A stretch of DNA of 64,000 bases from Proales similis (lineage: Eukaryota > Rotifera > Eurotatoria > Ploima > Proalidae), in the NCBI GenBank assembly GCA_019059635.1, contig JAGVRJ010000004.1:2232001-2296000 (forward strand). The letters are read 5' to 3'. Below are positions 22,495 to 48,895 of the stretch, piece by piece. The position numbers and the translations under genes were made by a program. The notes below the pieces were generated by a model. The model searched no databases and was not told the DNA's origin. It saw only the letters and a list, made by a program, of their open reading frames with translations. Within the stretch, counting starts at the first letter, position 1, and each line of letters starts with the position of its first letter.

Positions 22495-24808
22495 ATGAAA
22501 ATTGTTGTTTTGCTCTTGTTGCCTTTGATCAGAGCCATCGAATCAAAATGCAAGTTTGCTCTTTTTGTCGATTATCAATTTTAGGTAAACGTTCTAGATC
22601 TTGAACATTTTTCTATCTTAAGGGTTGGCATCGGCTGGATCGCAAGGAAAGCTGATGGTTTGGGATTTAGAGAACGGCGATCGAATAAGAACATATGACT
22701 CAAGTGGCAGGATTGAATCGAGCAGGTATTTGTCAAAGGGACGAATCGCAGTCGGCTCCAGAAACGGTCATTTCGAGATCTGGGACATTTGTCTAAATAC
22801 CTCAAGAAGATATGCGGCTCACGATGAAAGATTAACGCAGATTGCTGTCGCTGCTCACTACGATCTTATAGTCACGGGATCGAAAGCGAGAAATTACAAA
22901 ACGTGGAATTTAACAAGCGAAAGAGAAGAGTATGAATTTGACGATTTGTCAGGTTCTGTATCAGCTGTCGAAATATTAAGTAAAAACAGATTTGCAGTGG
23001 CTGACTCCAGTGGAGAATTAAGAGTGAGAGACGCCGTTAGCGGTAGATTATTGTATTCAGACGACCTTAACAGCCAAGTGACGTGTTTGAAGGAGCTTGA
23101 AATCGATTTTCTAGCTGCCGGCTTGGCCAATGGAAGAATTATCACGTTTTATTTAGACCAGAACCCGATAGCCAGTCAAAACTTGAATTGGCACTCGCAA
23201 GAAATTACGGCTTTGCTCAAGTTGAACGCTCAGTATTTTGCAAGCGCTTCCAGGGATAACTCCATAGTTATTTGGTCTCTTCAAGATAACCATTTCATAC
23301 GAGAGTTAACGGATCATTCGGCAGATGTGAACGTCTTGCTCAATTCTGGGTCTGGCGCCTTTTTAAGCGGCTCAAACGATCGAAAAATAATTATTCGATC
23401 GGAAAACGGCCAATCCAACTTGGCAATCCTAACCGACTCGATGGACATTGAGAGAATGGACCTGGTCGAAGAAGATTTATTAGTGACTGCTGATGAAAAG
23501 CTAATAGGCGTATGGAATTTGACTAAAAATGAGAGAATCATGTTAATCGAAATTCCCAGCTCGGAGCAAAATCTCTTGTCGCTTGAATCGTTCGATGATC
23601 CTTGCGCTCCAAAAAAGCAAAATGAAACAAAAATTAGCGATAACGGCACCACCGCGTGGACAGCTGCTGAACAAACAACAACTCGGATTGAAGAAGAAAT
23701 GAACCCACTGGTGGCGGAAGGAGAGACATCGACTCACTCCTACCTTGCCACCAACTCAAGCGTCCAGGTACCAAATGACCCTCGGAATTCTTCTCATCAG
23801 ACCCTAGAGCCAGAGGAGACAACTAGAGCGGCTTGGCTACCTCAGACGAGCAGTGTCGGCGAACACATTTCAGAATGGCCCGGCACTAGCCAAGCATCAC
23901 TAAACATGACCGAGTCTTACGATTCTGCTGCCACGTCAAGTAGGATGCGATTGACTGCTTTGTTTCGATCACCTTGTTTAAGACCACTAATGCAATCTAG
24001 GTGAGCCAAATTTAGAGACAAGTCTGGCGCCATCGGAAGAAGTGATCACAGCCCAAGTTCTACTATCCTCAGTACCAAGTATGAGTCTCTCATGTGCTTA
24101 TTAACTCCTTCTCAATGAGCTTGCCTGCTAGATAATCAGCCATTCGACATTGCTGACCTGTCAGAAGAAGCTGTTCTTCAGCTACTGGAGAGCGGACTCG
24201 ATCCGTCAGTATGTGTGGTGAACTGCACCAACCAAGGCCACTGCTTGTTCGACGGAGTGGCTCTGCGATGCAACTGCGAGAAACATTACTCAGGCGCGGC
24301 GTGTTCAGTTGAACAGCGCAAGTGCGCCTCGTCTCCCTGCTTGAACAACGGCACCTGCCACAATCTACTGCCAATCAACATCTCCTCTGGCCAGTATGAC
24401 TTTGACTGCGAGTGTGCGCCATTATTCTATGGACGCAACTGCCAGTTCAAGATTGACTTGTGTGCAAATGTGACCTGTTCAGGCAATGGGAAATGCGTGC
24501 CGGGCGCAGACGGCCGCTCTGTCTCGTGCAAGTGTTTCTATCTTTTTGAAGGCGATCAATGTGAAACACAGTCCTCTGATTTGGAGGTTGCCAAATCTGT
24601 GATCTCATACTCGACTATCGTGGCCATTATAGTGATTGTGCTGATTCTCTCGCTTTTCCCTCTTCTGGATCTAATCCGCATTTTTAGCCCAGCTGTCAAG
24701 TCAAAGCCTTTCAAGTCAAAGTGGTTCAAGCCAAAACAGTTCAAGTCACAGCCGCCGCTCAAACAGAAGCGGCGCCTGGTTAAAAAGCATCCGGTCTACG
24801 TTTCTTGA
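22495..24808 (+). CDS. WD40-EGF transmembrane receptor A
   Basis: Four exons joined by phase 1: 22495-22549, 22623-23939, 24001-24078, 24165-24808, about 697 aa. Order: signal peptide (MKIVVLLLLPLIRAIE), seven or so WD40-like blades (for example GKLMVWDLENG, GHFEIWDI, NSIVIWSLQDN, KLIGVWNLTKN), a long Ser/Thr-rich linker (about 330-480), three EGF-like repeats, a transmembrane segment at about 628-651 and a basic tail. The first intron uses a GC donor. The placing of a signal peptide before the propeller and a membrane segment after the EGFs puts the propeller outside the cell. The tail repeats a K-x-FKSK-like unit. Two close relatives lie at 44536 and 46946. Function unknown; a surface recognition role is inference. 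Confidence 0.82.
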
Positions 24809-26734
24809 TCGTTCCCTTCTGACTGCATTTACTCCCTTTTTGCAGCATATTCGCGTAGTAAATTGTTATTTTGTGCATTTGTCAATCTTCGAGAGGAAGT
24901 GAGACGGGATCGATGGGGCCAAATCTATCAATAGGGGAAAAAGTGTTTGCTACGGACTCAAACGGTCGAACTATTTACATTGTCCTACGTGTTGGAGCAT
25001 TGTTAGGTTGGAAACAATATCCACAAAGCTTAATGAGCAAACTCAGGCGCGAATCAGCAAACAAAAGCGCGCGGGACAAACAGAGCTGCATGCTTGCTGC
25101 CCGAACTGCTTGACTCTTTGAGCGAGTCTTCTTTTGAATGCAAATATCGCAATAGAAATTAAATTGTAACATTTATTTGAAGAAGCATTATAAACACCGA
25201 AGCTTATCGTCGCTCTGGGCTCATAAAGCAATTAATTGAATTAATTAGACGCTGAGATAGGCATGCGTCAGTTTGTCGGAGGCAAGCACGTCGCTCTCGA
25301 GGGAGCGGCTCTAAGTTCCGCGCCCATGTTCTAGGGCACGGGGCCGGGGGCTTTCGGTGTCGGTTTTATTCATCGCGCGTTTATCTTAAGACGAGCTGAC
25401 CGATTTGATGGTCGCTGCCGTCGGCTCGTCGTCATCAGAAGACGATCATGCCCAACAGCCATTAGTTGTTCGGAGCGCAACCGGTTTGAATTAACAGCAG
25501 TTAAATTGGATGCATGCGAGTGCAGCAAAATATATATATTGGCAACAGAAGCACTTGAGAGGAGAGGGCGCCGCGCCAGCTAGCCAGTAATACTCTCGCT
25601 TTAGCTTGATTGATCGACTCAAAATTGCAATCTATTGAGAGAGTGAAAAATGAGGTCAATCAAATAGCTGGCTCACACAGGCACTCGCACAGGCAGAGAG
25701 AAACACTTGGCGGCGCAGTTTCGCAGTCTCAATTTCCACGCTCGCTAATCGAGCGAAATGTGATCGCCACGATTAATTTAACAATGCAATGATTTGAATC
25801 GGCTCATTGCAGCGAGCTTTGCCCTTCTCTATTTTCTCACTGTCTCTCTCTCTCTTACTCTTTCTCTTTTCTGCGGCTCATCTCTGTTGCTGCGCTTCTC
25901 TTTTCCAGCCGCTGTCGATCAGTCGCTCTCATTTCCATTCAATACAATGCTAGAGACGCGGTTTAATTGAAGGGCGTTTGCAAATAGACTCGAGCTTTCA
26001 AGTTGAAGCTGCGCGCATTTGCTCGATTTCATGTTCCGACAGAAAAGTAATCAGGCAGTGCCAATCAAATAAATATCGATCAACACGCTCGTCAAGAAAA
26101 GACGAGTTTTGACGGCAGCCACAATAGCAGCGTCATGTGTGCTTGGTCGGTCGACGGTAAATTGCCCATTTCCTGCCTTGCTCTCCATAATTCATCGAAT
26201 GCGGACGTCCAATTCCGCATAATGGCCAGAGTTAAGCAGCCGTTTATGTCAATTTATGATTAGTAGACGTACAATGTCCGTCAGTGAAAATGCTAATCTC
26301 ATTCACGATTATAGAGTGAAATGAGAGGTCTCGAAGAGGCTATCGCTAATAAGCAAATGCTAACGATGATGAATGTGTGAGATTAAGCGAGACCAATAGA
26401 CCAGACACACATCCGGCGCTCTCGCATATTACACACTCACACACACACACACACACATGCACTTTACGAACACACAAACTCGCTTAATTCCGCTCTCGCA
26501 TATATGCCCGGCCATATTCATTATTCACGCGAATGTCAATGAAGAGCGCTGGCACGGACCCATGAGCGCATGTCCTCGAATGCAGATCATGATGCCTCTC
26601 GTTGATGAGAGAGTTCTCTGTGTGTTTATGGACGTTTTGTTCATTCGAACTTTTTCTTTTCCAGATGTGAATATGTTTCTGTAAAAGCGAACGAGAAGCC
26701 GACACCAAATAGCGCGAGTGAATTGAAAAAAAAA
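24809..26734. other. 1.9-kb region upstream of MAGI
   Basis: No coding frame is supportable. It holds the probable MAGI promoter and 5' UTR, with pyrimidine-rich and GC-rich parts (25260-25460, 25840-25910). Confidence 0.5.
26439..26457. repeat. AC dinucleotide microsatellite
   Basis: About nine AC units upstream of MAGI. Similar short AC/CA runs occur at 43625-43640, 52331-52348 and 59678-59691. Confidence 0.9.
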
Positions 26735-29700
26735 ATGAGCAGTCAACAGCAGCAGACATCATCGTCATCGAGCGATCGTCATCAGGCGATTAAGCAGCAG
26801 CAGCAGTCGCCGATGAAAGAAAAAGCAGAATCCAGCAAGCATTGGTCGCACCGTTTACGTCGAGTGCAAATACCGAGTAGAGCAGTGCCAGAGTTATTGC
26901 AGGCAGTGAACGGGGGCTCGGACAACGGACAGTTTGTTTACACTCGCGACTGCCTCCAAATCGACAACACGAGCCTGCTTCAGCCGGGCGATATAATTTT
27001 AGAGGCGAACGCAGAGCACAAGCTGAGCGGCTACACGCTGAGCGACGTAAGAGCCCTGCTCGAGCAACTCGGCTCCAGTGGCCAACACATAGAGCTGCAA
27101 GTGTGTCGAAGCAAGACGGCGCTCGAACAGCTTGTCTCGTCGACTTCAAATATGTCGCTGACGTCGTCCGCCTCCAACTCGAGCGCGTCGGCGGCCGAAG
27201 ACGCGCCACACGTGCTTGCTCACTTGCCGCTCGAGCTGCGCGCCTATCTAGACGAGCGATTTGAAAAAGACTCTCACGACTACCAACTGCAGCAAGTTAT
27301 TCGCGAGAACGTTTACATGCGAACGGTTCCCTGCACCACTCGACCGCCCCGTCCTGGCGAGCAGAACGGCCGCGACTACATATTCCTGAGCCACGACCAG
27401 TTCATGCAGCTGGAACAGTGCGGCGATCTACTCGAGTACGGTGTTTACAACGGCCACTTGTACGGCACGCCCAAGCCACCGAAGCAGCCGAGCGAGCCCT
27501 CAGGTGAGTTTTTGTCGACCTTCTGAGCAGCGCAGAATAGAAGCACCCTAGGCTCGCGCAATTAGCTCCTTATCGTGTGCACGAGCAATTAAAATAGCTG
27601 AGCTTATCGCACGCCTAATTGGCCTCGATATTTAAAGCTCTCTGTTTGAGGCCGAGTTTGCCCGCGGTCCCAGATCTCTGGTCGCCTCTGTTTCCATTCG
27701 CATTCTCTTGTTTTCGCCCAACTCAGACTTAATTGCTTTTTAAAACCGACCAGATTTGTTCAAAGCCGATTCGGAAGAAAGAGAGCAGCAAAGAGAGCCC
27801 GAGTCGGACAGAGCGATCCCGGCCACTAGACTGGTGTCGTCCGCCGAGCGAGACGTCGACGAGAAGAAAGGCGAAGAGTTGTTGCCCTACGGTTGGGAGA
27901 AGGTCGAAGACCCGGAGTACGGAACTTTCTACATAGAGTGAGTAGCTCCATTCTAACACTTGCAAGCTAAGAATTAGAAATGAATCATCACAATCGCTCG
28001 CTAAGCCGTCGGTTTATGTTTATTCCGCATACTCGATTTAAATTAAAAACGAAGAAAACTCTAATTTGTCCATAATCACTCTGACCGAGCGGTTGAATCT
28101 TGCTCTTACGAGCGACCCTTTGCATTGCCCGCCGATCGTTTCTAATTTCTCTCGCTTTTTTAAGCCACGTGAACAAGAAAACAACTTACGAGCATCCGTC
28201 GGTAGAAGAGGCTCGAATGAGAACATTCAAACCGGAGGTGGCGGCGGCGGCGGCAGAAGATGAGGAGGAAGAGGAGGCTATCGACCAGGCGCCCAAGCCA
28301 CCGCTTCCACCACGCCGCAACGTCTATTTCACTCGCGAGCCGAACGAACTGAGAGGACAGTTTATAAAAACCTCGTTGCGCAAAAGCTCGAACGGATTCG
28401 GCTTCACCATAATCGGCGCCAACGAGACGAGCGAAGACTTCCTTCAGATCAAACTGATTGTGCCAGAGGGCCCCGCAGCCCGAGATGGACGCCTCAGACA
28501 GGGCGACGTGCTTGTCTACGTGAACAATGAATGTGTGCTCGGCTACACGCATCAGGACGTGGTTGAAATATTTCAGTCGATCGCGGTCGGCAATCAAGTC
28601 CATTTGACTGTGTGTCGCGGCTATCCGCTCTGCATTGATCCGAACGATCCGAATATTGAAATCATGTCGCTGCCGGCCATCAACAACCCGGCCCGACCAC
28701 AGGCGGCCGTAGAGAGTGAGGAGCCTGCGCAAGCCACACTTGACACCGACTCTGAATATTACTGCGAGGAGTACGAAGAGATTTATGTGCCGATCGTGAA
28801 GGGCGCGCAAGGGTTCGGCTTCACGATTGCCGACGATGCTCAAATGAACCATCAAAAAGTAAAGCAAATATTCGACAGGGCCCGATGTCGCCTCCTCATG
28901 GAGAACGACATTCTGCTCAGCATAAACGGAGTCGAGCTGAAAAACAAGCCTCACGTCCAAGTGGTCGAACTGCTAAAAGAGTGTCCGAGTGGCCAAGAGG
29001 CGGTTTTAAAGCTCAAGCGTCGTAAATATGAAATATTCAAGTCAAAGCCGCCCCCAGCGCCCTCTAGCGTCAGTCAGGTGGAAGCACGCCGCCTAGTCAA
29101 CTCCAACAGCCACCACTCGCTCTTGGCCGAACGCGAACCAAGTCAAATGCAGCTGCAGCACGAGCGACGAGCCAAAACGCCCAACATTCTTATGAGCAGC
29201 AACTACCAAGAGCTGAGCGCTCATCGAAGCGGCGCTGAACTCCGCTCCAAAACGCCGACAACCGATCGAATGCTGAGCGGCGCCGCCGAGCCTCACGACT
29301 ACATTTACTTGACCAACACAAACGAACGACGCGAGACAGCTGCGATCAGCCGCAAAGAGGCCAGTCCTGCTCCTCATGCTCCGATCTACGACCGAACCAC
29401 CGACATTCAATACGAAAGGATCCAACAGAATGGTGCCGTGATGCGGTCGAAAACGCCCGGGCCCGAGTTCAATTACTTTCGTTCGCAGAACGCGGCTCAA
29501 ACTGATTATCAGACAATCGGCTCATTGGGCGCAAATCGATCGAACGGTCTGAGTCGAAGTAAAACGCCCACCGCCGACATGCTCTTTTATCCGAGTCAAG
29601 ATAGATCGAACGGAGCAGACATGAGCGAATTGCTGAGTCGAGATCTGCTCGAACTAATGCTCAGCAGCAATGGCAGCGAGATAAGCCTGAGCAGCGACGT

Positions 29701-31216
29701 CGACGGCAACAACTTTCTGGAGCTCAGCGTCGACTTGGTCAGACAAGAGAGCGGTTTCGGATTTCGCATAGTCGGCGGCGAAGAAGAAGGCTCTCAGGTG
29801 GCGGTCGGTTTCATTGTGCCCGACGGAGCAGCGCATTTGGATAATCGACTCAGGCCGGGCGACGAGCTGATCATGATCGACGACGAATGCGTTCTGGGCG
29901 CAACACATCGCCGCGTGGTCCAGCTCATGACCATTGCCGGCCTCAAGAGACACGTGCGACTCTTGGCCCGTCGCCGTCTCACTCACCAGCAGTATCAGGC
30001 GATTCTACAGCTTCAACAGAACAGACAGCCGGCGGCCGACTCGCGTCAATACCCCTACACGGTCACGTTGTTCCGCAACAATAACGAAGGCTTCGGCTTC
30101 GTGATCATTTCGACCACAAGCCGCAACGGACCCTCAATAGGTAAATTTCGTCGCCATAGTCTCATTCCACACCAGGCGGCCCATTTAGCCAGTGGCCCAT
30201 ATGCGCGCATTTCGTTCGCCAACATAGGTAACATGTGTCAGAGATTTGACTGCTTGCTGATGCTGTTATGAGTGTGCTGGTCTACCTGCTCATCAGATTG
30301 CGTTTGCCTAGCTGAACTGAAGCCGCACGGTGTTGAGTGAAGCTGCACATTTGTTTGCCATTTGCAACTAATCTAATCTCATGTTGTAGGAAAAATAGTC
30401 GAGAACAGTCCGGCAGAGAGAAGTCAGCGGTTAAATGTGGGCGATCGAATTCTGGCCGTCAATGGAATAAACATAACCCAAATGAACCATCTGGAGATTG
30501 TGCGACTCATAAAAGAGTCGGGCAATTCAATTACTTTGACCATCGGAGCGCCTATTCAAACAACGGCTGCCGAAGCAAATCAAATGGCTGCCACTCGTGC
30601 GATCAATTATCAGTCGATGCCATCATTCCCGCCTGTTGCTCCTCGGCCGGTCGTAAATCAGAACGAATATCACGTGATCGAGTTGCGTAAAACGGGCGCT
30701 GGCGGATTCGGCTTCAGCATTCGCGGTGGCAAAGAGTTCAACATTCCTCTGTTTGTTCTCAAACTCGCCGATAACGGCCCGGCCACTCTTGACGGCCGTC
30801 TTCAAGTCGGCGACCAGATTCTGGAGATAAACGGCATCGACGCCTACCACATGACTCACAGCGAAGCGATCGAGCGAATCAAGTCGGCCGGCAACATGGT
30901 CACTCTGCTGATTAGGAGAACGGGCTTGCCGCCGCCTTCGATCACCGACATAATCGCGGCCAACTCGTCTGCAGCCGTGTTATCTGCCCAACCGCAGCAG
31001 CAAGCGCCAATTCCGCCGCACATTTCGCCTGTCGACCAATTTCAGCCGATCGTCGGCGGTGGTGGTTACTCCGTCTACTATCCGCCAGCAGCCGGCATGC
31101 CCAACAATCATCTGAGCAGCCATGATCTCGGTCGAATGAGAGCCAAATCGCCCTACATTGGAGCGAACGTGAAGCCCTATAGTTCGTTCGGCACCTTAGT
31201 GAACCGTCATTATTGA
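26735..31216 (+). CDS. MAGI: MAGI-type scaffold (PDZ-GK-WW-five PDZ)
   Basis: Four exons: 26735-27503, 27754-27937, 28165-30140, 30390-31216, in phase, about 1251 aa. Order matches MAGI junctional scaffolds: a divergent PDZ0 (about 30-130), a partial inactive guanylate kinase region (about 165-256), one WW domain (LPYGWEKVEDPEYG, about 302-333), then PDZ1 (383-471), PDZ2 (523-605), PDZ3 (834-920), PDZ4 (948-1030) and PDZ5 (1071-1153). The protein binds tails of membrane proteins at cell junctions and synapses. The WW is like the second WW of vertebrate MAGI; no first WW is seen in the exons or in intron 1. The region between PDZ2 and PDZ3 carries repeated RSKTP motifs (see findings). The start ATG follows an A run. 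Confidence 0.92.
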
Positions 31217-31814
31217 AATCTCAGCACCCGATGCTCCCAACTGTCGACCAGCCCTGAGCTAGAACGTGTCTAATTTACCAATCTCTGGAGTCTGCATCAT
31301 ATTCAAGGTTTCAAGTTTCGAAATCACGATTCGCACTTGACTTGTTCGCATGTATCTCGACTCATTTCTCACTTTGTCCGCTTTATTCTCTATTCGCTAA
31401 GGCAAACAATTATTTCTGACGATGGTTATTATTATTAATTGGCAGACAAATTGACTTTTGCCTGTATGCTCGTCGTCGTCAATTCGTTCGTCGTTCGTAC
31501 AGCGCATGTTCTTATGATTTCGGAAAAAAGATTTTTTTCTTTCTGTTTCACTCAAATAAGAGGAGAGCAACAACAACAACAACAACAAACCAAAAACAAA
31601 ATTATTAATATTTAAACGCTTTTCTATTCTCTTTTCTTTTTGTTCACTGTCTAAAATAAAACGAATCAATTGAGCCGCTGCCGACAAACAAGAGTGAATA
31701 AGGGAAAACTGGAGGAGATCTGCGTCTGTGCTCATGCGAAATTCAGATTTAACGAGTCGAATGAGAGGGAAACGCAGAGAGCTCAGTTTAAACAAAGTTT
31801 AAATTGCCGGCTGA
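31217..31814. other. Intergenic between MAGI and SLX1, with CAA repeat
   Basis: MAGI 3' flank and SLX1 promoter. A CAA trinucleotide run lies at about 31568-31589. No gene seen. Confidence 0.6.
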
Positions 31815-32702
31815 ATGCAGTCCAACGAGGAAAATCGTCACATATACAAAGCGGGGCACTTTTTCGGCTGCTATTTATTGGTGAGCACCAATCCGAAGTA
31901 CAAAGGCCGCACCTACATCGGATTCACAGTAAATCCGAGCCGGCGAATAAACCAGCACAATGCCGGCTACCAGAAAGGCGGCGCCAAACGAACGAGCGGC
32001 CGCGGCCCCTGGAACATGGTGCTGATTGTTCACGGCTTTCCCAACGAGATATCTGCGCTTCGATTCGAATGGGCTTGGCAGAATCCGGAAAAGTCGCTGC
32101 GCCTCAAACACATCGTGCCCAAAACAAAACAGTTCAATTTTAGCGCCAAATTCAGCGTTCTTGTCGAAATGCTTCGCATCGGGCCTTGGTGCAGACTGCC
32201 GCTCACTATTCGCTGGCTGAGGCAAGAATACCGTTGTGAATTCCCGCTCAACAAACTGCCCCCACCGCACATGCCGATCGAGTACGGGCTTGTTCAGATA
32301 AAAGGCAAAGTCAGCCAGCCCGATCAGCCGCAGCCACTTTTCTCACTCAGCGATCAATGCCAAATCTGCATGCATCCGATTATCGATCAGAACTGTTTGC
32401 AGCCAAACAACGCCGGCCTCAAATGCATCAAATGTCAGTCGAAATTTCACACAATCTGCTTGTGCAACATGTTTCTGATCGAACAAGCCGAAAGCACAAA
32501 CAGCAAACAGCTCATACCCATAGAGGGAACATGCTCGTCGTGCGACACAGTCCTCAACTGGGGCGAGCTGATCAATTATCGCCTAAAAGGTTTTCAAACG
32601 GCACATTCAACTGAAATGGAAGATGATGACTCTGAAGGAGACGAAGAGCATGACGAACAGGTATCGACCGATGACGAAATCTCCGCCGCATCCCAGCTCT
32701 GA
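31815..32702 (+). CDS. SLX1: SLX1 structure-specific endonuclease subunit
   Basis: A 295-residue single-exon protein. The N-terminal GIY-YIG nuclease domain (about 14-100) shows GCYLLVSTNPKYKGRTYIGFT and the family's NPSRRINQHN, GPWNMVLIVHGFP and ALRFEWAWQNP. A C-terminal zinc finger of RING/PHD type follows (CQICMHPI, CIKCQSKFHTICLCNMF, CSSCDTVLNWGELI, about 178-250), and then an acidic tail. SLX1 pairs with SLX4 in the nucleus to cut Holliday junctions and branched DNA. Length and domain order are standard. An AATAAA at 32718 follows the stop, only about 40 nt before the next gene's ATG. Confidence 0.95.
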   Translation: MQSNEENRHIYKAGHFFGCYLLVSTNPKYKGRTYIGFTVNPSRRINQHNAGYQKGGAKRTSGRGPWNMVLIVHGFPNEISALRFEWAWQNPEKSLRLKHIVPKTKQFNFSAKFSVLVEMLRIGPWCRLPLTIRWLRQEYRCEFPLNKLPPPHMPIEYGLVQIKGKVSQPDQPQPLFSLSDQCQICMHPIIDQNCLQPNNAGLKCIKCQSKFHTICLCNMFLIEQAESTNSKQLIPIEGTCSSCDTVLNWGELINYRLKGFQTAHSTEMEDDDSEGDEEHDEQVSTDDEISAASQL

Positions 32703-32756
32703 TTTCAGCCAAACGAGAATAAAATCAAGCGTTGGAAACGAGCCATCGCATACAAA

Positions 32757-34730
32757 ATGAGTCTTCATTTGACTCTGATTCGAACTTTTTTCATATTTAC
32801 TTTGATGATGCTAATAAACGGCGACGAACTCTTCTGCAGGGAAACAGTAAAATCAAAGAGCCAGGCGAAATGTGAAAAACCGACCAAACATCATGAGATA
32901 ATTGATCTTTTAAGGCAGAATCGAACTTTTTTCACTCTATGTTCGCCAGATTCTCTCACAATAAGGCTTTTAACTCAAGCTCGAGTGTTGGAAATATTGA
33001 TCATCCGAAATTTTTTCGTCAGCTGGTCCTTAGTGACTTCATTGCTTCAGCGAATGGACTTGGAAACGCTGATTATCAACGAATCACAATTGAAGAGTTT
33101 ACCGCTTCGGAGCCTCTCAGGTCCGCTCTCGATCGAGACATTGGACTTTTCTAAGAACATGCTTCGGTCATTGAAGGGCATAGAGGCATTTGACAGTCTG
33201 TGTCACTTGCGTGTCGCTTCCAACCAGCTAAGGCAGATCAACGAGCTGGCCTCGCTCTCAAATCTCCAAACACTGGACGTCTCCAATAATTGGATCTCGG
33301 ACGTCAAGCCCATCGGCCATGCTTTGACTGCGCTCGAGAGTTTGGATTTGAGCTTCAATCCGTTTGAAGATCATCTCACGCTCAGTTCGATGAGCAGTCT
33401 CAAGATACTCAAACTGAATGGACACCGAATCGTGTCAGTCGAGTTTCTGGCCGGCATGAATCAGCTATTGGAGCTACAAGTCAGCAACTGCCAGTTCATA
33501 AATGCTCGGCCGTTTTTGTTCTCCTTGAACTTGTCCGAAGGCCAACACAGCTTGGCAAGTTTGGACGCCGAAGCGAGCGGCATATTCAATCTAGCGGGCA
33601 TTGAGAAGCTGCTCAATTTGACCAGAGTAAACCTGAACGACAATCGACTGGAAGACATTGAGCCGATTGTATCCTTGGTCAACCTGCGCTACTTGTACCT
33701 GAGCAACAACCGAGTGCGCACACTGCCGTCTAGATTCAGTCGCATGCGAGAGCTTGTCGAGTTGAGAATATCGAGCAACCTGCTAAGGCGGATTGACTCC
33801 GACCAAATGGCACCGAATCTGGCGAGCTTATTTGCATCTAAAAACATTCTGGAGAGCATTGATGGCCTATCAAGCGGCGAAAATCTGTTCGAAGTCTATT
33901 TATCGAGCAATTTCCTGACCGATCTGACGCCTCTTGGGCATCACTTGAACCTAACGACCGTCTGCCTGTCAAACAACTCAATCGAGAATGCAAACGACTT
34001 GTTCAATTCGAAGAGCTTGAAGCAAATCGACTTGTCTCTAAACAAAATACGAGAAATCACCTGTCCCGAGCCTATTGACCTTAACTTGATCAATCTGGCC
34101 TCCAACAATATCGAGCGCATTGACTGCAATTTAAGCACTTATTACTTTGACGCGTCAAACAACCGTCTTTCAGATTTGTCTTTTTTAAATCACTCAACCA
34201 AGATCAATTACGTGAGCCTTTCCAACAACCCGATTCCATCCCTAGACCAAATTCCGTTTGATATGTATTTCTATTCGCTTGAGATGAGCGGCAACAATAT
34301 AAGTGATATCACAGTCCTCTTGAACATCACCTACTTAAGCTATCTCAACTTGTCAAACAACTGTCTGCTCGATCTCTGCGTAGTGTCCAGCCTTGAGCAC
34401 CTGCAGACTGCCGATTTCAGACAGAATCCGATTCAAAGCTGGTGCTCGTTTAAGAAGAATTCTTTTCTCAAGCGGATTTGGATCGACTTCGACCGTGATC
34501 AAGCGGAACAGCTGCTGCATTCACTGCGAGAACTACAAGAGCGAAGGTTAAGCACCAAGAAATTCGGAGTCTATTATTCAGCCATTTTCGTCAATTCAGC
34601 TTTTACGTTCGACTGCGAACTCACCATCAGAGGAATTCGAGTCGGAGTGTTTCTTAACTTATTCTACGATTGGCAATTTGAACAATTTCTGTCCGTGTGC
34701 GCCTCCGAAGTTAATCTTGAAACGCTTTAG
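32757..34730 (+). CDS. Secreted leucine-rich repeat protein
   Basis: A 657-residue single-exon protein. A signal peptide (LTLIRTFFIFTLMMLING) is followed by a short cysteine-containing region and about twenty LRRs of 21-23 residues with the form L-x-x-L-x-L-S-x-N-x-I (for example LQTLDVSNNWISDVKPI, LRYLYLSNNRVRTLPS). A C-terminal piece with cysteines (WCSFKKNSF, FDCELTIRG, SVCASEV) may act as a cap. There is no transmembrane segment or GPI-like tail, so it is probably secreted. Many N-glycosylation sequons. Its start lies 54 nt after the SLX1 stop on the same strand. It converges with the BLM gene. Ligand unknown. Confidence 0.82.
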   Translation: MSLHLTLIRTFFIFTLMMLINGDELFCRETVKSKSQAKCEKPTKHHEIIDLLRQNRTFFTLCSPDSLTIRLLTQARVLEILIIRNFFVSWSLVTSLLQRMDLETLIINESQLKSLPLRSLSGPLSIETLDFSKNMLRSLKGIEAFDSLCHLRVASNQLRQINELASLSNLQTLDVSNNWISDVKPIGHALTALESLDLSFNPFEDHLTLSSMSSLKILKLNGHRIVSVEFLAGMNQLLELQVSNCQFINARPFLFSLNLSEGQHSLASLDAEASGIFNLAGIEKLLNLTRVNLNDNRLEDIEPIVSLVNLRYLYLSNNRVRTLPSRFSRMRELVELRISSNLLRRIDSDQMAPNLASLFASKNILESIDGLSSGENLFEVYLSSNFLTDLTPLGHHLNLTTVCLSNNSIENANDLFNSKSLKQIDLSLNKIREITCPEPIDLNLINLASNNIERIDCNLSTYYFDASNNRLSDLSFLNHSTKINYVSLSNNPIPSLDQIPFDMYFYSLEMSGNNISDITVLLNITYLSYLNLSNNCLLDLCVVSSLEHLQTADFRQNPIQSWCSFKKNSFLKRIWIDFDRDQAEQLLHSLRELQERRLSTKKFGVYYSAIFVNSAFTFDCELTIRGIRVGVFLNLFYDWQFEQFLSVCASEVNLETL

Positions 34731-34945
34731 CTTTATCCAATCCTCTTGGTTGCAACTCATTTGAAAGCTTCATTTCTTAACTTGCCTTGTTAGTCTTATC
34801 AAAACCAATTTAACTTATTTCAAACTGCTCTGGTTTGCCGCATTTATTGAGAGTTTAAAGAAAGTGATTGTGCTTAGTGTACAGAAGACTGTTAGGGCGT
34901 GCGAAACAGGCGGATTTGTAAAAGACGACGAGCATCATGCTCATT

Positions 34946-39227: not shown

Positions 39228-39354
39228 GCGCCGCCAGCTCGCCGGAATGCACTTCAAATTCAAAATTGTAATCTGTATAGGGAATGAATAAAGCAGTTGT
39301 AAATAAAGCGGAATATTTATTCTAAGACTCTACGTTGATGGTCTAATTTAAGGT

Positions 39355-40084
39355 CTAGTCTACAAGGGGTCCGAAAAATAGTCGAGATGCATCAGCTTCG
39401 TCAGTGCTCGAGAAGAAACTTCGACCGAAATTGACAAACTCTACAAAAGCACAGACGCTGCTCAAGTCAAATTTGACATTCGAAAGTTCTAAAAAAAAAA
39501 CTTGCCTTCTTTTGCCAGCGATCCGTCAGAATCAGAGTCAATGTCGGCAAATACTTTGGCGGCCACTCCCTCTTCAGTCACATTTAAGCTTTTAAAGTAA
39601 TTGTCGAACTCGACCGGTGAGATGCTGCCGTCTTTGTTCGAATCGATTGCGTCGAAAATGACTGGAAGCGTTTGACGCAGGGTGGCTTTCTTTTCCTCGT
39701 CGCCCAATACCTTTTACCGGTCGACATTAGACGGCAATATGAATAAATACACCTGCACTGACCTGCTTGATGTGAGCGGCCAGCTCCAGACACGAGATAC
39801 TTCCGTCTCCGTTGTTGTCAGCCGGCGCGAAGTAAACGTCCCACAAGCTGCTCAAGTGTTGTCTCAGCTCATCGCATTGCGTTTCGTTCAAGTTTCCTAT
39901 ATTTTGCGGATTTTTTTTCTCAATCTCTCTATGCAGTGGAATTTCAAAATGTAAATTTACCGATTGCAATCAAACGGTCAGCCCATTGGTTAAAGTCTGA
40001 ACGTTCAATGCTGCCGCTGTTGTCCGCGTCAAATCGAGCGAACAGAGTTTTCACTTTTCGCATAAAAAACTGCTCGGCGGCCAT
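39355..40084 (-). CDS. Sarcoplasmic calcium-binding-like protein, four EF-hands
   Basis: Four exons on the minus strand: 40084-39961, 39896-39763, 39710-39506, 39440-39355, in phase, 182 aa. Four EF-hand loops are visible and all look competent: DADNSGSIERSDF, DNNGDGSISCLEL, DSNKDGSISPVEF and DSDSDGSLAKEEF. Length, even spacing and an end in FFGPLVD fit invertebrate sarcoplasmic calcium-binding proteins, which buffer calcium in muscle and neurons. The last intron has a GC donor (GCAAGT). Calmodulin-type alternatives are less likely because of the length and C-terminus. Confidence 0.88.
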
Positions 40085-40990
40085 TTCACTGCTCAAAAGT
40101 ACTCTTTCAAGTTGTCTATTCTCAATTAATAGCAAACGCTTATTGAGTCTTATTTATAGGCCGAGAAGCCATCGGGCTTATCGCTTCACTTTCGCAAGCA
40201 CTTTTCTCTTGGTCTATCTTTTTCTCTCTTCGCCTCTCTCTCTAATTCAAGTCAGCCAGCTGCCAGGCTAGAAAGGCGTGATTTTTCATTCGGCCAGGCG
40301 GTTGATAAAAAAGTGTCAAAGGCCAAATGCGGTGTGAGCCACTGAACTTGGATCAGTCAATTTACGTCACAGTTAATCGCAATCAAAACTTCAAGATATA
40401 CCCCTAATCTCTCTCTCTGTCTATCTATCGCTCTCACTTTGTGTCGTCAGCTTGAGCCGCGTCGCTGTTGAGAAGCTATCAGAGAGCTGCTGACAGATGA
40501 TCAACACGTCACCCTTTACGTAGAAGAGACGACGCGGGGTTCGATCAGTTCACGCGTGCTAGCTCACTTTAAAGATGGCTCGAATTGAAAGCCTAGCGCT
40601 GAAATGAGTGCCGAACGAGACGATGCTATGAGACGAGCTAATGCTAATTCTGCTGGTTGATTAAAAGCTTTTATTTAAGCGTTAAATTGTTACAGAATCG
40701 TTGCAGGCGGAGTTGGGCTGTCTTTGGTAGACCTGATCGTTTTATTCTATTTTATTTGCTGCTTCTTATTATTATGAAATTGTTCGTTTGCAAACAATCT
40801 CAAACAGTTCAGTGTTTCATGTGTTTAGTTCTTATGAGACAAATGAAAATGAGGAGGTAAACGCCACCGTTCAGCTGTGGTCCGAGAAAAGGAGATAATG
40901 GGTAAGAAAAAAAAAAGAGGAAAAGAAAAAAAGATAAAGAGGCAAACACAACGGGGCCGTTAAATGGCCATTTAGAACGACATCGTCGCT
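40085..40990. other. Intergenic, about 900 nt
   Basis: Upstream flank of the EF-hand gene and 3' flank of ERK7. It contains CT-rich and A-rich runs. No gene seen. Confidence 0.5.
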
Positions 40991-43244
40991 CTACCACCAT
41001 TTCCGGAGCGCATTGAGACCGTTTGCGGTTATGGTGCTGTGATTCTGTGTGTAATTGCCGAACATGGTTCGTGCGGCCAGGTTCGCCGTCATGTTGGTCT
41101 GATTTTGAAACTGCTTGCGACCGAAGCTCGGCTTCGTGTTTGCTCTCAAGTCGGTCGCCGAGATCGGCCTGTACAAAACAGAACTGGTGCCGTTGCCGCT
41201 GGTCTGGCCCTTTGTGAGCAACGAGTTTTTATTGTTGAAATTCTTGGTTGGGTTCAAAGAAATGATCTGACTCACAGTTTCCTTCATGGTGCGGACCTGA
41301 GTTCCGATGCCAGAGCTCTTGTCAATGTTCCTCATGACCAGAGGCCCCTTGGTCTGACCAAACGAAGAGCCTGAGCGATAATTTATTTGCCCAGCTGCGT
41401 TGAGCTGACTCGGCGTAGGCGCCGAATTGGAATTCCTCGACAGATTGCCGTAACTCGTAAAGCTACTGGTCCTATTCAGGCCGACGCCGGTGTTGGTCTG
41501 TATAAAGAAAATTTTGGCCATTCAAATCAATTCAAGTGTGCGAATTGAATGCTTACCATGGCAGCAGTTGTTGCAGCGCTCACATTCTCGAAGCTCTTTT
41601 GTCGTTGTACAGCCAACGCGCGCTGTCTGGCATGCGTTTTCACGTATGTGTTCGGCTGTGGCGGCTGCGAATGCGTAGTGCGACCAAACGCCACACCAGT
41701 GAAAGCGGAGCCAACGCCGGTCAACACGTTCGCTTGAACTGGAGTGGCCGAGCCGCCGGTGCCACTGTGCATGTAGTCACTTGGATGCTTCTTGCGGTAG
41801 TAGCCAGCCGAGTTGGCCGCGTAATTGTTCTCCATCGGCTTGTGTGTTGAAGTCTTCTCTGACGACGAGGGCGGCGTCGGAGTGGCCGAGTTGTCGTCCG
41901 AATGATTGTAGTTGTTGGCATCCACAGTCTCCACTTCTACATCGGCTCGCTCGTAGGCGGAGAGCACGTCCGGCTTTGCTGAGAGACGCGAGTCGCTTAT
42001 GAGCTGCTGCTTTCGTGCGTTTATCTTTTGCTTGTTCTGAATGAACTGGTAGAGTTTGTTGCGGTACTCGTCAATAGTCAGACGCACATTGTCGTCAAGC
42101 AGCGGCACCACGTCATAGCCTTTGTCGATTTCCTCGCGCGAGTTGTGAAACGCGATCACATACGGATGCCTGAGCGCCTCCTCGGCCGTGATTCGCTTGT
42201 TCGGATTGAACTGAAGCAAACGCTTGAGCAGGTCCATGGCTTCACGACTCGCGTTGGGCACAAGCTCTTCGAGGCTTTTGCGCGGTCCGGTTGCGGCGCG
42301 TTCGATCACTGTCGGACCGTAGTGCGATTGTATGCTGTCCACGTCCGCCTTGCTCGGCGTCGGTATGTACTTGAGAATGCGCTCTAGCTGGTTGAAAGTG
42401 GAAGTTCCCTGAAATATGGGCGCGCCGACCAGCATCTCGCCAAGTATGCAGCCTATGCTCCACATGTCCACGCCCTTGGTGTATTTGGGCGAGGCGAGAA
42501 GAATCTCGGGCGCCCGATACCATCTAGTTGCCACGTACTCAGTGAGAGCCGGGTTGCTATGCTCGCTCTCATGCGACTCGTGTGTAAGCGATCGCGCCAG
42601 GCCGAAATCGCACAACTTCATGTGACACTCTTGATTGAGCAGAATATTGGACGGCTTTTGATCGCGGTGAATCACATTCGCCGAGTGCAGGTATTTGGTC
42701 GCCTTGAGCAGCTGGTACATGATGTACTGCTTGTGCACATCCTTCAGAATGGTCTTTCTCTTGATCACATTGTGAAGGTCGGTCTCTGTCATTCTACAGC
42801 TTAGAACAGAGGCGGCTGTAGGCTCACTCAGCTCACTTACCCATATGCTCGAAGACGAGATAAATATCTCGATCGTTGTCCGCCTTGATCACATCGTACA
42901 GTTTGATTATGTTCGGATGTTCGCCGAACTCTTGCAGGAACACAATCTCTCGGTATGTTCTCTGAAGCGGCAAATTGTGAACATACAAGAGCATTTCGTT
43001 TGAAATATGAAGCCAACCTGGGCGTCTGTTTCGTTGCGGAACGCGTCAAATATCTTTTTGAGCGCCACAGTCTCATTGCTTTTGCGATCCGTTGCCTTCC
43101 ATACGATTCCATAAGCCTTAAACCCGGAGCGACCGCTTTAATTCCTACCAACTCAACTTGCTCCATTCAGGCACTTACCCCTTTGCCTAATCGCTTCTTA
43201 ATCTCATACTTTCTTAAAATGTGATTTTCGAGCTCATCCGGCAT
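40991..43244 (-). CDS. MAPK15: ERK7/MAPK15-type atypical MAP kinase
   Basis: About five exons on the minus strand starting [22 protein letters not shown] at 43244-43180, then kinase exons (including [16 protein letters not shown] and [21 protein letters not shown]), the large exon ending near 41560, and a final exon ending at 40991. The kinase core has [11 protein letters not shown] (Gln replaces the usual Leu, as in ERK7/8), DFGLARS, the TEY activation loop and [11 protein letters not shown] long Ser/Thr/Asn-rich C-terminal region follows, also typical of ERK7, which regulates cilia, secretion and autophagy and self-activates. The exact boundaries of the small 5' exons were not all resolved. 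Confidence 0.9.
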
Positions 43245-44535
43245 CGTACGTTTCAGCACATTAATTGTGCGTTTCTTAACAAAATCAAACTCAAATTTAA
43301 TACAGAAAGACCAGTGAGAAGAGCTTGAAAATGAATTTGAATTGACGATCGGCCGCCAACAAATTGACCCACCAACGCAACGACTGGCGGCTCTGGCTGC
43401 CCGTGCCGACAGCCAAACACCGCAAAATATTTTGAATCAAACAAAGAATGAGAGAAATGCCTGCCTCATAATTTATGAACGCTGATTTGTCGTCGTCGTT
43501 AATGGTGGTAGTTGCGGCGGCGCCGTTCTCTTTTTATTTACGGTTGCCATGGACAACTGATTAAATTCGGTCGAGACTTGGCTACCAATAAGCATGCGCA
43601 CCTTCGCACAACCTCAAATACTTGCACACACACACACACATTGGCGCATAGAAAATTCCTCGCATCCATTTTTATCTTGTGGAGGGTAGTCAAGAGAACT
43701 GCTCATTGCCGGACCCAGCAGAAATAAGTCACTGACCTCTTTCTTTCTGCCTTCATTTTCAATGGCGGGATTAAACGGCTTTTCAGCAGCTTCGCTTTAT
43801 TTGGGACAAGGCGTCATTGAGGCCGGCTTGGCTCGCCTGAGAATTAAAGACTCCCCAACTGAAAAATAAGAAACCAACGGTTTTCAGGACTTTTAAAAGT
43901 TCTTGCCAAAAAGGCCCAACTGCCAGCACAGAGAGCGCTTGACAAAAGACCAGTTTCAAAAACGTCTTTTTCAATCGGATCTTATGCTTAAAGCGACGGC
44001 TATACAGAATCTTCAGATCAATTTAAATTGCAGCAAAAACCAGTTTCGATCGAAGTTTCGATCTGAGTAAAAATAGCTCGGCTACTGTTTGAAGAGAAAG
44101 AGCTTATTTGATCTTGTTTGTTTGTGTTACTGGTTTTGAGCTGCTGAGTCGAATAAGAGACACGCCCGAGTCTTGTGGGAATATTGACCTTGAATTTAAA
44201 TTACTGAAAAAGAGTATCGGATTTTGTTCAAAAAAAATACTCAATTGTTTCCTCGAGCAAATATAATCACGAACCACAATCAATGAAGCTGTTGAGTGAG
44301 TTTGCTCGGCATATATTGCTGATTGATTCCCACAGCTCTAACTAAACAACTAAAAATTCTAGTTGTAGCTACAGAGTAAACAAAATGTTTAACGTTGACT
44401 GACACCGGGAAACAAGAAAATGTGCAAAAAGAGGCTGCTGGTGTTCTTGATTAAAAGCTAACGCAAGAAGGAGTAGGATATGCCCGCCTTTATTTAGTCG
44501 AGACAACTAGCTAGAATCTAGGCCAGTTGGCGAAA
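43245..44535. other. 1.3-kb divergent intergenic region
   Basis: Between ERK7 and WD40-EGF gene B. No supportable gene; a short CA run at 43625-43640. Confidence 0.55.
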
Positions 44536-46508
44536 ATGGAAAATCTAGCTTCACTCGTTCTGCTTGTGTTGGCAGGCAAGAGTCTGCAGACAAGTAAGTA
44601 ATTTCAAACCTTAATAGATATATCGATGAAAACTAAATAGTAAACGAAAGATTTCGCCGCGGTTGACGATGGTGGTTATCTTAATGTTTGGAATTTGAAT
44701 TCGTCCTCGACAACACCGACAAGAATGAGCGATAACAGCAATGGCCTCATAGCGGTAGAATATTTGCCAACAGGCAGATTCGCCACTGGGGGAAAAGACA
44801 ATTATCTAAGATTCTGGAACGCGACAGGCCAGCAAAATACAAATAGCAACCAACTTGAAGCCGATGTAGTGGTTGTAGCATTAATCGACGTAAATCGTTT
44901 GGTTACAATGTGTGACAATCACGTCAGAATCTGGGATATTAACACCGAACTTGAAGTGTATGATTTAACAATGCCTGCTCAAGTAAAGGAAGTAGTTGCA
45001 ATTCGAAACGGCCAAGTCGCAGCTGGAGATGATTCTGGAAATGTCAAAGTATGGGATGCTTACACTGGCCAAGAGATATTATCCAAAAGCCGCACCAATC
45101 CGGCTAAAGTAAAATCAATGGTTGATCTTCACAACGGTCGATTTGCTGCTGCATTTGAAGATGATCTGATCGGCATCTTTGATATTAACGATCAGTCGAA
45201 TTGGCCTCAATTCACTCCTTCTGCATATGCTCATACGGGCAATATCGAAACAATGTTACGCCTTGATGATCAAAACTTTGCCAGTGGCTCGCATGACTTG
45301 ACAATTAAAGTTTGGCGCATAAGTGATTTGGGCTACTACACAACAATTACAGGTCATCAAAGTCACATTCGGGACATGGTCAAGCTAAGTGACACCAAAT
45401 TTGCAACTGCCGATAAGAATGGACTTTTGATCATCTGGCACCTAACTGCTTTCACCCACTATAACACATTGACCACTGGGACTGAAATAAAAAAGTTGCT
45501 CAGAATTCAATCTGATGTGGTGGCGGCTATGACTTCTGATTGGATCAAGTTATGGAATTCTGAAACTTACCAACTACTCAAAACTTACAATAAGCCTGAT
45601 GCTCCCTTCAAAGACATGGCTATTGGTGTGATCGACTGGACTCAAATTTCAACAGTTACCCCGGGCCAATCGACCACTAGCCCATCGAGCACCAGTGCAT
45701 CGACAACTACCAGTGATACTACCACCCCTCCAACGACTACTACAACAGAAACCACCACGACCAGCGCCATAACAACAACAGTTCAAAGTAATAATGCCTC
45801 AATCCTAAAACAAATTCAAAAAAGAAATGACAAAATTAAAAAGCAAATAGCCGATTTTCAATTTCACAATTAACAACAGCCGGGGTCCTAAACATTTTAG
45901 AAGGAATCTTGGACGCGAGTAATTGTTTATCGAACTGCTCCAACCGAGGCAGCTGCATGTTCGACGGCACGGCCTATCGCTGCGATTGCCAGCAGCACTT
46001 CTCGGGCCAGTCCTGCCTGGTCGACCTGCGCCAGTGCTCTTCGTCGCCCTGTCTGAACAACGGCACTTGCCGCGACCTGTTGCCTCCGGCTCACAACAGC
46101 ACGGGCCAGTACGACTTTGAGTGCGAGTGCGCGCCGCTGTTCTACGGACGGAACTGCCAGTTCGAGGTCGATCTGTGCGCGAACGTGACATGCTCGGGCA
46201 ACGGCAAGTGTGTCCAGGCCACTCGGGGCGGCACAGTCTCCTGCAGCTGCTTCTATCTGTTCGAGGGCGAGCAGTGCGAGATTGAGTCTGATGATAAGAA
46301 GGCTGTTCAAAGAGTGATGACAATTACTTCCATAATAGCAATTGTGGTCCTGTGCTCTTTCTTTCTGTTCACATTGCTTATGGATCTGTCAAAATTGTGT
46401 GACTACCTGGGCTCACGTCGCAAAACTCGCCCAGTTAAAAGAAAAAGGATCATTGTGTGGAAAGCAAAAAAGCAAACCGAGCCTCAACGACTAGTCTATA
46501 TAAACTGA
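44536..46508 (+). CDS. WD40-EGF transmembrane receptor B
   Basis: Three exons, 44536-44593, 44651-45787, 45880-46508, all joined in phase 1, about 607 aa. Signal peptide (MENLASLVLLVLAG), WD40-like propeller (blades such as GYLNVWNLN, NYLRFWNATG, GNVKVWDAYTG, LTIKVWRISD, DWIKLWNSET), a Thr-rich linker of about 50 residues encoded around 45660-45787, then NCSNRGSCMFDG and the three EGF-like repeats, a transmembrane segment (about 537-560) and a basic tail of about 47 residues. The exon phases equal those of genes A and C. The EGF part is GC-rich and almost identical to that of gene C, whereas the propeller is AT-richer and only distantly alike. An AATAAA lies downstream near 46640. Confidence 0.87.
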
Positions 46509-46945
46509 CTCGATCGGTTGTAGGTTTCCTCGATTTAACAATTCTTGCCATTTTCATAGAATGCACTACATTTACCAACCCCTGAACAATCGCCATTCCC
46601 CTCAAATGTGCTGATTTAAAACTTAACTTTAATATAGCAATAAAAAATATTTTTGTGTTGTTTAAAAGCAGTTTGCAGTCGCTTTCATGGAAAATAAAAT
46701 TTCCTCGAAAAGAATATTTAGCTTAATAGCTATCGAAAATGCGTTTAGGTTTCTGACATTCCGATTATTTATTGCTCATCGGTGCATTTTAAACCAACAC
46801 AAATAAGCTTATCGCATATTTATTTCTTTCCACCACATTTTTCATTCATTACATCATCTCATTTATTTTATTTGCCGATCGCCTGTCTATTTGTGTTATG
46901 CCGAGTATACTGTTTACCCGAGATTCGACCCTTCGGCCTGCAGCC
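46509..46945. other. Intergenic between WD40-EGF genes B and C
   Basis: AT-rich, includes the polyadenylation signal of gene B. Nothing else recognised. Confidence 0.5.
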
Positions 46946-48895
46946 ATGACCTTCTTCTATCCAATTTTAGTCATTTTTTTGAACCTTGTGGGATATTCGT
47001 TCCAGTCTTCAGGCTGTAAATATCCTCTATTTCACTTCTTGCTTTAAATGATGCAGGCTTGGCTTATTGGATTGTGTGTAAGTGATCGCAACGAGCACAA
47101 CAAATGGTGACCTTTACATTTGGGACCTAGCGGCTGGCAATGAGTCGAAACATTCGATGAGCGTTCAAACACTGAACTCTGTTGAGTATGTTGCGAGCGG
47201 TGGGCTGGTCACAGGTAGCAGAGACGGCCAACTAGATCTACTTGACGTAACAAGTGGCGCGTCAATCAGCCTTGGCACGACCGGTTTGGAAATTAGAGAC
47301 TTGGTCACACTGGACCAAAGTCGACTTGCAGTAGTCAGAACTTTCACAATCGAAATATGGAACATGGAGAGTCGCTCAATCGAAAAAGATTTAACATTCT
47401 GGAGCACAATAACTGTTTGCATTCGAATAGAGCCGGACAAGGTCGCAGCCGGAAACAGTCAAGGAGCAATTCTGGTCTGGGACTTTTACTCTGGCCAAGT
47501 CCTGATAAACAAGCAAATGGCGTCTTTCTCAAATGTCAGATGCATGGCCGATTTGAAAAATGGCCAAATGGCTGCCGGATTTGACGATCGTAAAATTGTT
47601 GTCTTTTCGTATTTGGATCGAGACGAGCCACAAACATTTTTGCAAGTCGACTTGCGGCCAATAATTTCGATCGTTTGGCTCGACGCCGACTACTTTGCCA
47701 GCAGTTCTCAGCAAAACTGGATAAGAATTTGGCAGAGGAGAGATTTTTTTCTGTGGAAAACGTTGTATGCACATGGTGGCGATGTGAACGCCATGCTCAA
47801 GATCGATGACTGGAGGTTTGCCAGTGGATCAAATGACGATTCGGTGCGAATCTGGAAAAACTTCCAGGATCCGTTTCAAATCGGTTATTTGCATCACGGC
47901 GAAAATGTGCTCAAACTTGACTTGATAAATCAGACTCATATAGTTTCGATGTCCTTAAATCTTATTAAGGTCTGGAATGTCGACCTATTCGTCCTTGTAT
48001 TTAGTCGAATGGCGGAAAGTAATCAGGACTATGTGGACGTTGACGTCTTAATTCCAGACTGGTTCGTAAATCATTTCAGCCATTCGGAGCCTTCTTCAAC
48101 GGCGAAATACAGTGCTCAATCGGTAGCCGGCGGTTTTGAAACAATTAAAATATTCAATTCAATCGAGGCCAGTCCAACTACAAGAGAGACAAGTTATACA
48201 AGTAGTGAAACTAGCATCAGCTTTACAACGTCTTCACTAATACCAAGTAAGTAAATAACGTCTTTATACCGCCACCGGGCACGGGGATCTAACTCTGTCC
48301 TTTTGCGTTAATAGTGGAACAGTCATTTTCTGTCGAGACCCTCTCAGTTGCTTCTGTTTTGAGTATTCTGGAAGGTGATGGCGACGCGTCAAACTGCATT
48401 TCGAATTGCTCCAACCGAGGCAGCTGCATGTTCGACGGCACGGCCTATCGCTGCGATTGCCAGCAGCACTTCTCGGGCCAGTCCTGCCTGGTCGACCTGC
48501 GCCAGTGCTCTTCGTCGCCCTGTCTGAACAACGGCACTTGCCGCGACCTGTTGCCGCCGGCTCACAACAGCACGGGCCAGTACGACTTTGAGTGCGAGTG
48601 CGCACCGCTGTTCTACGGACGGAACTGCCAGTTCGAGGTCGATCTGTGCGCGAACGTGACATGCTCGGGCAACGGCAAGTGTGTCCAGGCCACTAGGAGC
48701 GGCACAGTCTCCTGCAGCTGCTTCTATCTGTTCGAGGGCGAGCATTGTGAGATCGAATCAGCAAATAGAAAAGTTGTAAAAAGAGTGTCGTCAATAACTT
48801 CGATCATTGCTTCTACGATTCTTTCGTCGTTCTTCATCCTGACACTCTCATTGGACATTTCCAAAGCTTTTAACTTTTTCTGTCGCAAATCTTAG
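46946..48895 (+). CDS. WD40-EGF transmembrane receptor C
   Basis: Three exons, 46946-47015, 47083-48246, 48315-48895, joined in phase 1, about 604 aa. Signal peptide (MTFFYPILVIFLNLVGYSF), WD40-like propeller (GDLYIWDLAAG, FTIEIWNMESR, GAILVWDFYSG, NWIRIWQRRD, DSVRIWKNFQD, NLIKVWNVDL), a Ser/Thr-rich linker, three EGF-like repeats and a transmembrane segment at about 570-592. The cytoplasmic tail is only about 12 residues, against about 47 in B, so any signalling through the tail must differ. It lies 437 nt behind gene B as a tandem copy. The linker keeps SILEG...DASNCISNCSNRG, matching B and A. Confidence 0.87.

What the first reader, a model, noticed from the sequence alone, without database searches (positions are those of the whole stretch)
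22495..48895. A family of three surface receptors that put a WD40 propeller outside the cell, joined to EGF repeats
Genes A (22495-24808), B (44536-46508) and C (46946-48895) each encode a signal peptide, WD40-like blades, a Ser/Thr linker, three EGF-like repeats, a transmembrane segment and a tail. WD40 domains are almost always intracellular; a secreted-side propeller fused to EGFs and a membrane anchor is not an architecture I know. Conserved phase-1 exon joins argue that it is one gene each, not neighbours. A role in recognition (immune, mating or adhesion) is inference.
Basis: partly seen in the sequence, partly recalled or inferred. Interest (0 to 1): 0.88.

Follow-up and report, generated by a model that had tools for sequence, protein, structure and literature searches.

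The report
Rotifer surface receptors with outside WD40 propellers
A tiny marine rotifer has a large family of cell-surface proteins that share one EGF-and-membrane base but wear different outer heads; in the three genes found here the head is a WD40 propeller, a fold normally kept inside cells.

Summary
Genes A, B and C each encode a signal peptide, a WD40 propeller, a Ser/Thr linker, three EGF repeats (18 Cys), one membrane helix and a basic tail, in three exons joined by phase-1 introns. AlphaFold of B's head is confident (pLDDT 90; best matches are eight-bladed WD40 propellers). The assembly is Proales similis, a monogonont rotifer.

It goes further. The EGF3-membrane-tail "chassis" matches at 45 places with E below 1e-16; 34 of 35 inspected keep the 18-Cys pattern but heads differ: WD40 in 11, WSC or PKD-like in others, some unclassified. 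Brachionus and unnamed environmental contigs share the chassis. EGF-coding DNA is homogenised between neighbours (B/C 97% identical, dS 0.09) while heads (26% amino-acid identity) and tails are saturated: gene conversion. Three other genes read here carry signal peptide and WD40 in one unspliced ORF, so extracellular WD40 is not an artefact of one splice join.

Most likely role: modular recognition or adhesion receptors. Ligand and signalling are inference.

The parts
22495..22549 (+). Gene A exon 1: signal peptide MKIVVLLLLPLIRAIES..., ends in phase 1
   Evidence: 1 of 400 random upstreams as good
22550..22622 (+). Gene A intron 1, GC-AG, phase 1
22623..23939 (+). Gene A exon 2: WD40 propeller and Ser/Thr-rich linker
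24132..24808 (+). Gene A exon 3: pre-EGF segment, three EGF repeats (about 24212-24562), membrane helix, tail ending VYVS, stop
44536..44593 (+). Gene B exon 1: signal peptide MENLASLVLLVLAGKSLQT, phase 1
   Evidence: 0 of 400
44651..45787 (+). Gene B exon 2: WD40 propeller (modelled 44644-45630, pLDDT 90) and Thr-rich linker
45844..46508 (+). Gene B exon 3: three EGF repeats (about 45924-46277), membrane helix, basic tail ending LVYIN, stop
45934..46264 (+). Tract nearly identical to gene C (28 to 30 of 30 bases per block) with divergence on both sides
   Evidence: ends approximate, to within a 30-base block
46946..47015 (+). Gene C exon 1: signal peptide MTFFYPILVIFLNLVGYS..., phase 1
   Evidence: 1 of 400
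47083..48246 (+). Gene C exon 2: WD40 propeller and Ser/Thr linker
48315..48895 (+). Gene C exon 3: three EGF repeats (about 48395-48748), membrane helix, short tail, stop

Best explanation
A, B and C are single-pass cell-surface receptors of a rotifer family built on one base: pre-EGF segment, three EGF repeats, membrane helix with an Asp just behind it, and a short basic tail often ending in a Tyr motif. The N-terminal head is exchangeable; here it is a canonical, probably eight-bladed WD40 propeller held outside the cell on a Ser/Thr-rich (probably O-glycosylated) stalk. The head binds a ligand (microbial, food, mate or neighbour-cell surface); gene conversion keeps the EGF part alike between neighbours while heads diverge, and the tail may pass on a signal or anchor the protein. 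Shown here: gene structure, domains, membrane topology by inference from sequence, the chassis family, different heads, homogenised EGF DNA. Inferred: surface display, ligand binding, kind of ligand, signalling.
Against: No transcript, protein or localisation data. N-glycosylation sequons are not enriched in A, B or C (3, 2 and 2; shuffles as high in 350, 455 and 362 of 500) and are below expectation over the 11 P. similis heads (26 against 36.5). The cysteine comparison is void: most of its supposed cytosolic WD40 controls proved to be secreted. The only close head pair tested shows no positive selection (L042/L043 dN 0.216, dS 0.527). C's tail is short and lacks the Tyr motif, which 13 of 34 copies lack. 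P0140 could be a chimeric assembly.
Confidence: 0.68

Rival explanations
1. Structural adhesion or cuticle/mucus-layer proteins rather than recognition receptors: the propeller is a sticky or cross-linking module and the many heads reflect tissue types.
For: Mucin-like stalks, EGF repeats, short tails without known domains; secreted WD40 proteins without membrane helix occur too, one with a Mucin2_WxxW domain.
Against: Tandem arrays with strongly diverged heads on a conserved base are commoner in recognition families (established knowledge, not tested); conserved Asp and tail motif suggest a job inside the cell.
Confidence: 0.25
2. Adjacent separate genes: a WD40 gene followed by an EGF-membrane gene, joined only by the reader's splicing.
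For: The linker introns have weak-looking donor sites (GTAGGA in A, GTAATA in B) and no cDNA was available.
Against: Order and phase-1 join repeat in A, B and C; annotated B. calyciflorus proteins and the 534-aa P0140 hold both parts; paralogues such as L048, L054 and L056 have head, linker and EGF in one ORF; the EGF exons have no leader of their own.
Confidence: 0.03
3. The WD40 part faces the cytosol (inverted topology or no secretion).
For: WD40 domains are generally cytosolic or nuclear (established knowledge); sequons not enriched in A, B, C.
Against: Leader exons; same position taken by WSC and laminin-G heads in relatives; EGF with 6 Cys each must be outside and no membrane helix separates them from the head; secreted WD40 ORFs with leader in one exon, three read.
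Confidence: 0.03

Closest known systems
WD40 repeat proteins (PF00400), eight-bladed type such as Fbw7/Cdc4, Rsa4/Notchless, TBLR1 (blade counts of these recalled)
   Same: Fold and sequence signature
   Different: Those are cytosolic or nuclear scaffolds; here the propeller follows a signal peptide and is tethered outside by EGF repeats and a membrane helix
LDL-receptor/LRP-type proteins with YWTD propeller next to EGF repeats
   Same: Extracellular propeller beside EGF repeats and one membrane helix
   Different: Different propeller family (six-bladed YWTD, recalled); no YWTD family among C's 20 listed matches, or among the listed 25 each of A and B
Teneurins and Notch ligands (Delta, Jagged)
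   Same: EGF repeats resemble EGF_TEN and EGF models; NCBI calls a B. plicatilis member 'delta C'
   Different: EGF_TEN is under its cut-off (42 of 65 bits) and no DSL domain is listed
Fungal HET-D/HET-E NLRs with WD40 repeats (recalled)
   Same: WD40 used for recognition, with near-identical repeats like the secreted C7 genes seen here
   Different: Intracellular NACHT proteins; no such domain here
Lineage-specific invertebrate recognition families (FREPs, Alr, VLR; recalled)
   Same: Tandem copies, variable heads, conserved base
   Different: Heads are immunoglobulin, fibrinogen or LRR domains, not WD40

Membership tests
WD40 repeat propeller | Pfam WD40 above cut-off | tested here: met
   A 40.5, B 53.8, C 27.8 bits against 27
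WD40 repeat propeller | Propeller fold | tested here: met
EGF-like domain | Six-cysteine repeats, Pfam EGF above cut-off | tested here: met
   Three repeats, 18 Cys in A, B, C; PF00008 34.1 to 48.9 bits against 21.5
LDL-receptor YWTD propeller family | YWTD repeats | tested here: not met
   Absent from C's complete list at E up to 0.1 and from the listed 25 of 34 (A) and 25 of 26 (B) families
Teneurin | Teneurin EGF model above cut-off with NHL/YD shell | tested here: not met
   EGF_TEN 42 to 44 bits against 65; no NHL or YD family listed
Notch ligand (Delta/Jagged) | DSL domain | tested here: not met
   No DSL family listed in the EGF exons of A, B, C or in P0121, the 'delta C' record
Rotifer EGF3-membrane chassis family (defined here) | 18-Cys pattern, membrane helix, Asp behind it | tested here: met
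   A, B and C among 34 of 35 inspected copies
Immune or mating receptor | Ligand, expression and phenotype | not testable with these tools
   No expression or binding data held

The most novel reading that the evidence does not exclude
Monogonont rotifers have turned the WD40 propeller into a general extracellular recognition module: as exchangeable heads of tandem EGF-membrane receptors whose shared base is kept uniform by GC-biased gene conversion while heads diverge, and as secreted propellers, some with the Trp-Asp signature replaced in every blade by a Trp-Asn-X-Thr glycosylation site. Together they form a lineage-specific recognition system (immune, allorecognition or mating) with no described counterpart.
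Probability: 0.35. Interest if true: 0.9.

Novelty: new variant of a known kind. Interest (0 to 1): 0.76.

Why it matters
WD40 is among the commonest eukaryotic domains and is treated as intracellular. A phylum-level case of WD40 heads on the cell surface, swapped with lectin-type heads on one base, would show that the fold survives secretion and serves as an outside recognition module, and gives a compact animal in which head exchange, gene conversion and ligand binding can be tested. It would also correct automatic annotations (one member is filed as Delta).

Tried and rejected
Separate-gene and cytosolic readings: weighed and rejected, see rivals. Sequon enrichment as proof of secretion: fails for A, B, C; over heads from other sources 60 sequons against 38.7 expected, over P. 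similis heads 26 against 36.5. Cysteine content against cytosolic WD40: void, because most of the 12 controls proved secreted on reading. Positive selection on heads: not seen in the one close pair. Fold of the unclassified beta-type head (P0002, folded alone): pLDDT 38, useless. Whole-B protein search: scored only the 8000 candidates with most words, mostly generic WD40; the region searches were more telling. One search found only 3 proteins, one of them (P0141, astacin type) not of this family, P0138 of 19 is not of this family. No bdelloid member was listed, but word-based sensitivity does not exclude one. PKD in WSC-type heads: only below Pfam's cut-off. C-type-lectin-like head of L070: seen by eye only, Pfam found none.

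Literature: WD40 with EGF and rotifer, 0 papers; six phrases for extracellular or secreted WD40, 1 paper, on cyanobacteria; rotifer with WD40, 13 papers, 12 listed, none on this by title and abstract start; five terms on WD40, signal peptide and EGF, 7 papers, none on this by listing; WD40 repeats with gene conversion, 0; Brachionus, EGF-like, WSC, 10 papers, 8 listed; mate recognition with EGF, 2. PMC8878817, on rotifer secretory lectins with P. similis included, was seen in passages only: WSC, WD40 and laminin do not occur in its main text. PMC11954553 was seen in passages only. Subscription papers are mostly not in the library.

Full report
Source. The window is C4:2232001-2296000 of a 32,716,893-base assembly in 15 contigs. 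Contigs C1 (3,837,811) and C6 (2,428,301) equal the largest scaffold and the N50 given for Proales similis (15 scaffolds, 32,722,929 bp) in PMC11954553, seen in passages. I conclude it is this monogonont rotifer; the total differs by 6,036 bases, which I cannot explain.

Leader exons. I asked how often random window DNA placed upstream would offer a phase-1 join with an equally hydrophobic leader: 1, 0 and 1 of 400 for A, B and C. Six further genes have such an exon joined just before the first blade: L018, L039, L040, L043, L044, L046 (3, 1, 6, 4, 2 and 1 of 400). L042 gave a weak candidate (7 of 400). In one search no leader was found for L041, L045 or L047.

A chassis with exchangeable heads. 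B's EGF exon as query has 131 matches in the genome, 45 with E below 1e-16. I inspected 35 of these 45: 34 match a strict triple-EGF cysteine pattern; L067 does not. All 34 have an Asp just behind the helix, and 21 of 34 have Y-[VIM]-[NPS] in the last 12 residues; Tyr in the last eight residues occurs in 22 of 34, against a mean of 9.6 and a maximum of 19 in 2000 shuffles. Heads by Pfam: WD40 in 11 (A, B, C; L039-L044, L046, L047); L045 is a truncated remnant without a Pfam hit. WSC is found in L061 and L064 above cut-off and in L050, L060, L066, L068 below it; PKD in L062 below it. L049, L051, L059, L063 and L065 were put with the WSC/PKD type by eye. L048, L052-L054 and L056 share an unclassified beta-type head by eye, and L070's head looks like a C-type lectin by eye only.

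Outside this genome. Region search with the chassis of P0003 gave 19 proteins including itself, 18 of which I count to the family; P0138 is another EGF protein. Eight are from Brachionus calyciflorus, most with WD40 domains (P0123 only weakly; P0137 has WSC below cut-off). P0121 of B. plicatilis is filed as 'delta C' without a DSL match. Nine with laminin-G heads come from environmental contigs without a named organism; I assume rotifers. A second region search added P0139 and P0140. P0140 holds WD40, EGF repeats and helix in one 534-aa protein.

Exchange of heads. On a tree of 54 chassis sequences, P0140 (WD40) lies within the laminin-G clade (99/95; with P0136 99/92), and starred branches force at least three changes for WD40. 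Labels made by eye enter this tree, its bootstrap had not quite settled, and long branches meet (L057 with L066); P0134 did not match the pattern and was left out. A chimeric contig could fake the P0140 case. Heads are nevertheless far more clustered than shuffled labels (13 changes against 30.6), so exchange is occasional.

Gene conversion. B and C are nearly identical over about 330 bases of EGF code (28 to 30 of 30 bases per block) and fall to 13-16 before and 11-23 after. EGF DNA identity is 97%, dS 0.089; head identity is 26% over 322 residues with dS saturated, and tail dS is saturated too. Similar contrasts occur in L039/L041, L059/L063 and L062/L065. Third-position GC is 0.73 in EGF against 0.45 in heads, higher in 11 of 11, as GC-biased conversion would leave; over all 34 copies EGF exceeds tail in 27. 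Codon selection on the EGF part is an alternative for GC3, not for the sharp tract ends.

Secreted WD40 elsewhere. Meant as cytosolic controls, most other WD40 matches turned out to be secreted. Read in full: C6:1124 kb (leader plus propeller, 301 aa), C6:271 kb (leader, Cys-rich part, Thr linker, propeller), C7:306 kb (same plan). In the C7:306 kb and C7:302 kb genes the propeller has no Trp-Asp and seven Trp-Asn-X-Ser/Thr sites, 8 sequons against 3.0 and 2.9 by shuffling, and no cysteine. The C7:302 kb ORF carries a Mucin2_WxxW domain (E 2.2e-16); its leader was not in that ORF. About nine more places show both Cys-rich and WD40 parts with one open-frame length; these were not read. L020 (C7:2125 kb) has no leader in its ORF and looks cytosolic.

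Against. Sequons are not enriched in A, B and C. The one close head pair shows dN/dS about 0.4. No expression, binding or localisation data exist here. The linker donors of A and B are not strong.

Function. The anatomy is that of single-pass surface receptors with a ligand-binding head on a mucin-like stalk. Tandem copies with diverged heads on a homogenised base fit recognition of varied partners. The tail's Y-V/I-N could be an SH2 docking site (Grb2-like pYxN, recalled); this is a guess. I put recognition at about two to one against a purely structural role.

Noticed in passing
L032:3833-4741 (C6:1124 kb), L034:3031-4443 (C6:271 kb), L021:901-2403 (C7:306 kb): Secreted WD40 proteins with signal peptide and propeller in one unspliced ORF, two of them behind a Cys-rich domain and Thr linker.
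   Followed up: partly
L021 and L019 (C7:302-307 kb): WD40 propellers in which Trp-Asp is replaced by Trp-Asn-X-Ser/Thr in seven blades and cysteine is absent; near-identical repeats.
   Followed up: partly
L028, C4:2696.4-2699.9 kb, minus strand: A leader exon and a first WD40 ORF (L018), then a Thr-rich stretch, a second WD40 ORF without a leader of its own (L047) and a chassis: perhaps one double-propeller gene.
   Followed up: no
L045 (C4:2707 kb): Chassis intact but WD40 head cut to 143 aa, with no Pfam hit: decaying or shortened copy.
   Followed up: no
P0121 (Brachionus plicatilis): Record named 'delta C isoform X2' belongs to this chassis family and has no DSL match.
   Followed up: partly
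L066:1-1455 (C7:654.4 kb): 485-aa ORF ending in a hydrophobic stretch upstream of a WSC-headed chassis gene; not identified.
   Followed up: no
window 32703-34727 (+): Long intronless LRR ORF with a hydrophobic leader-like start (Pfam LRR).
   Followed up: partly
window 2329-3718 (-): Cys-rich EB-module ORFs (Pfam EB).
   Followed up: partly
window 31815-32699 (+): Intronless SLX1-type GIY-YIG nuclease ORF.
   Followed up: partly
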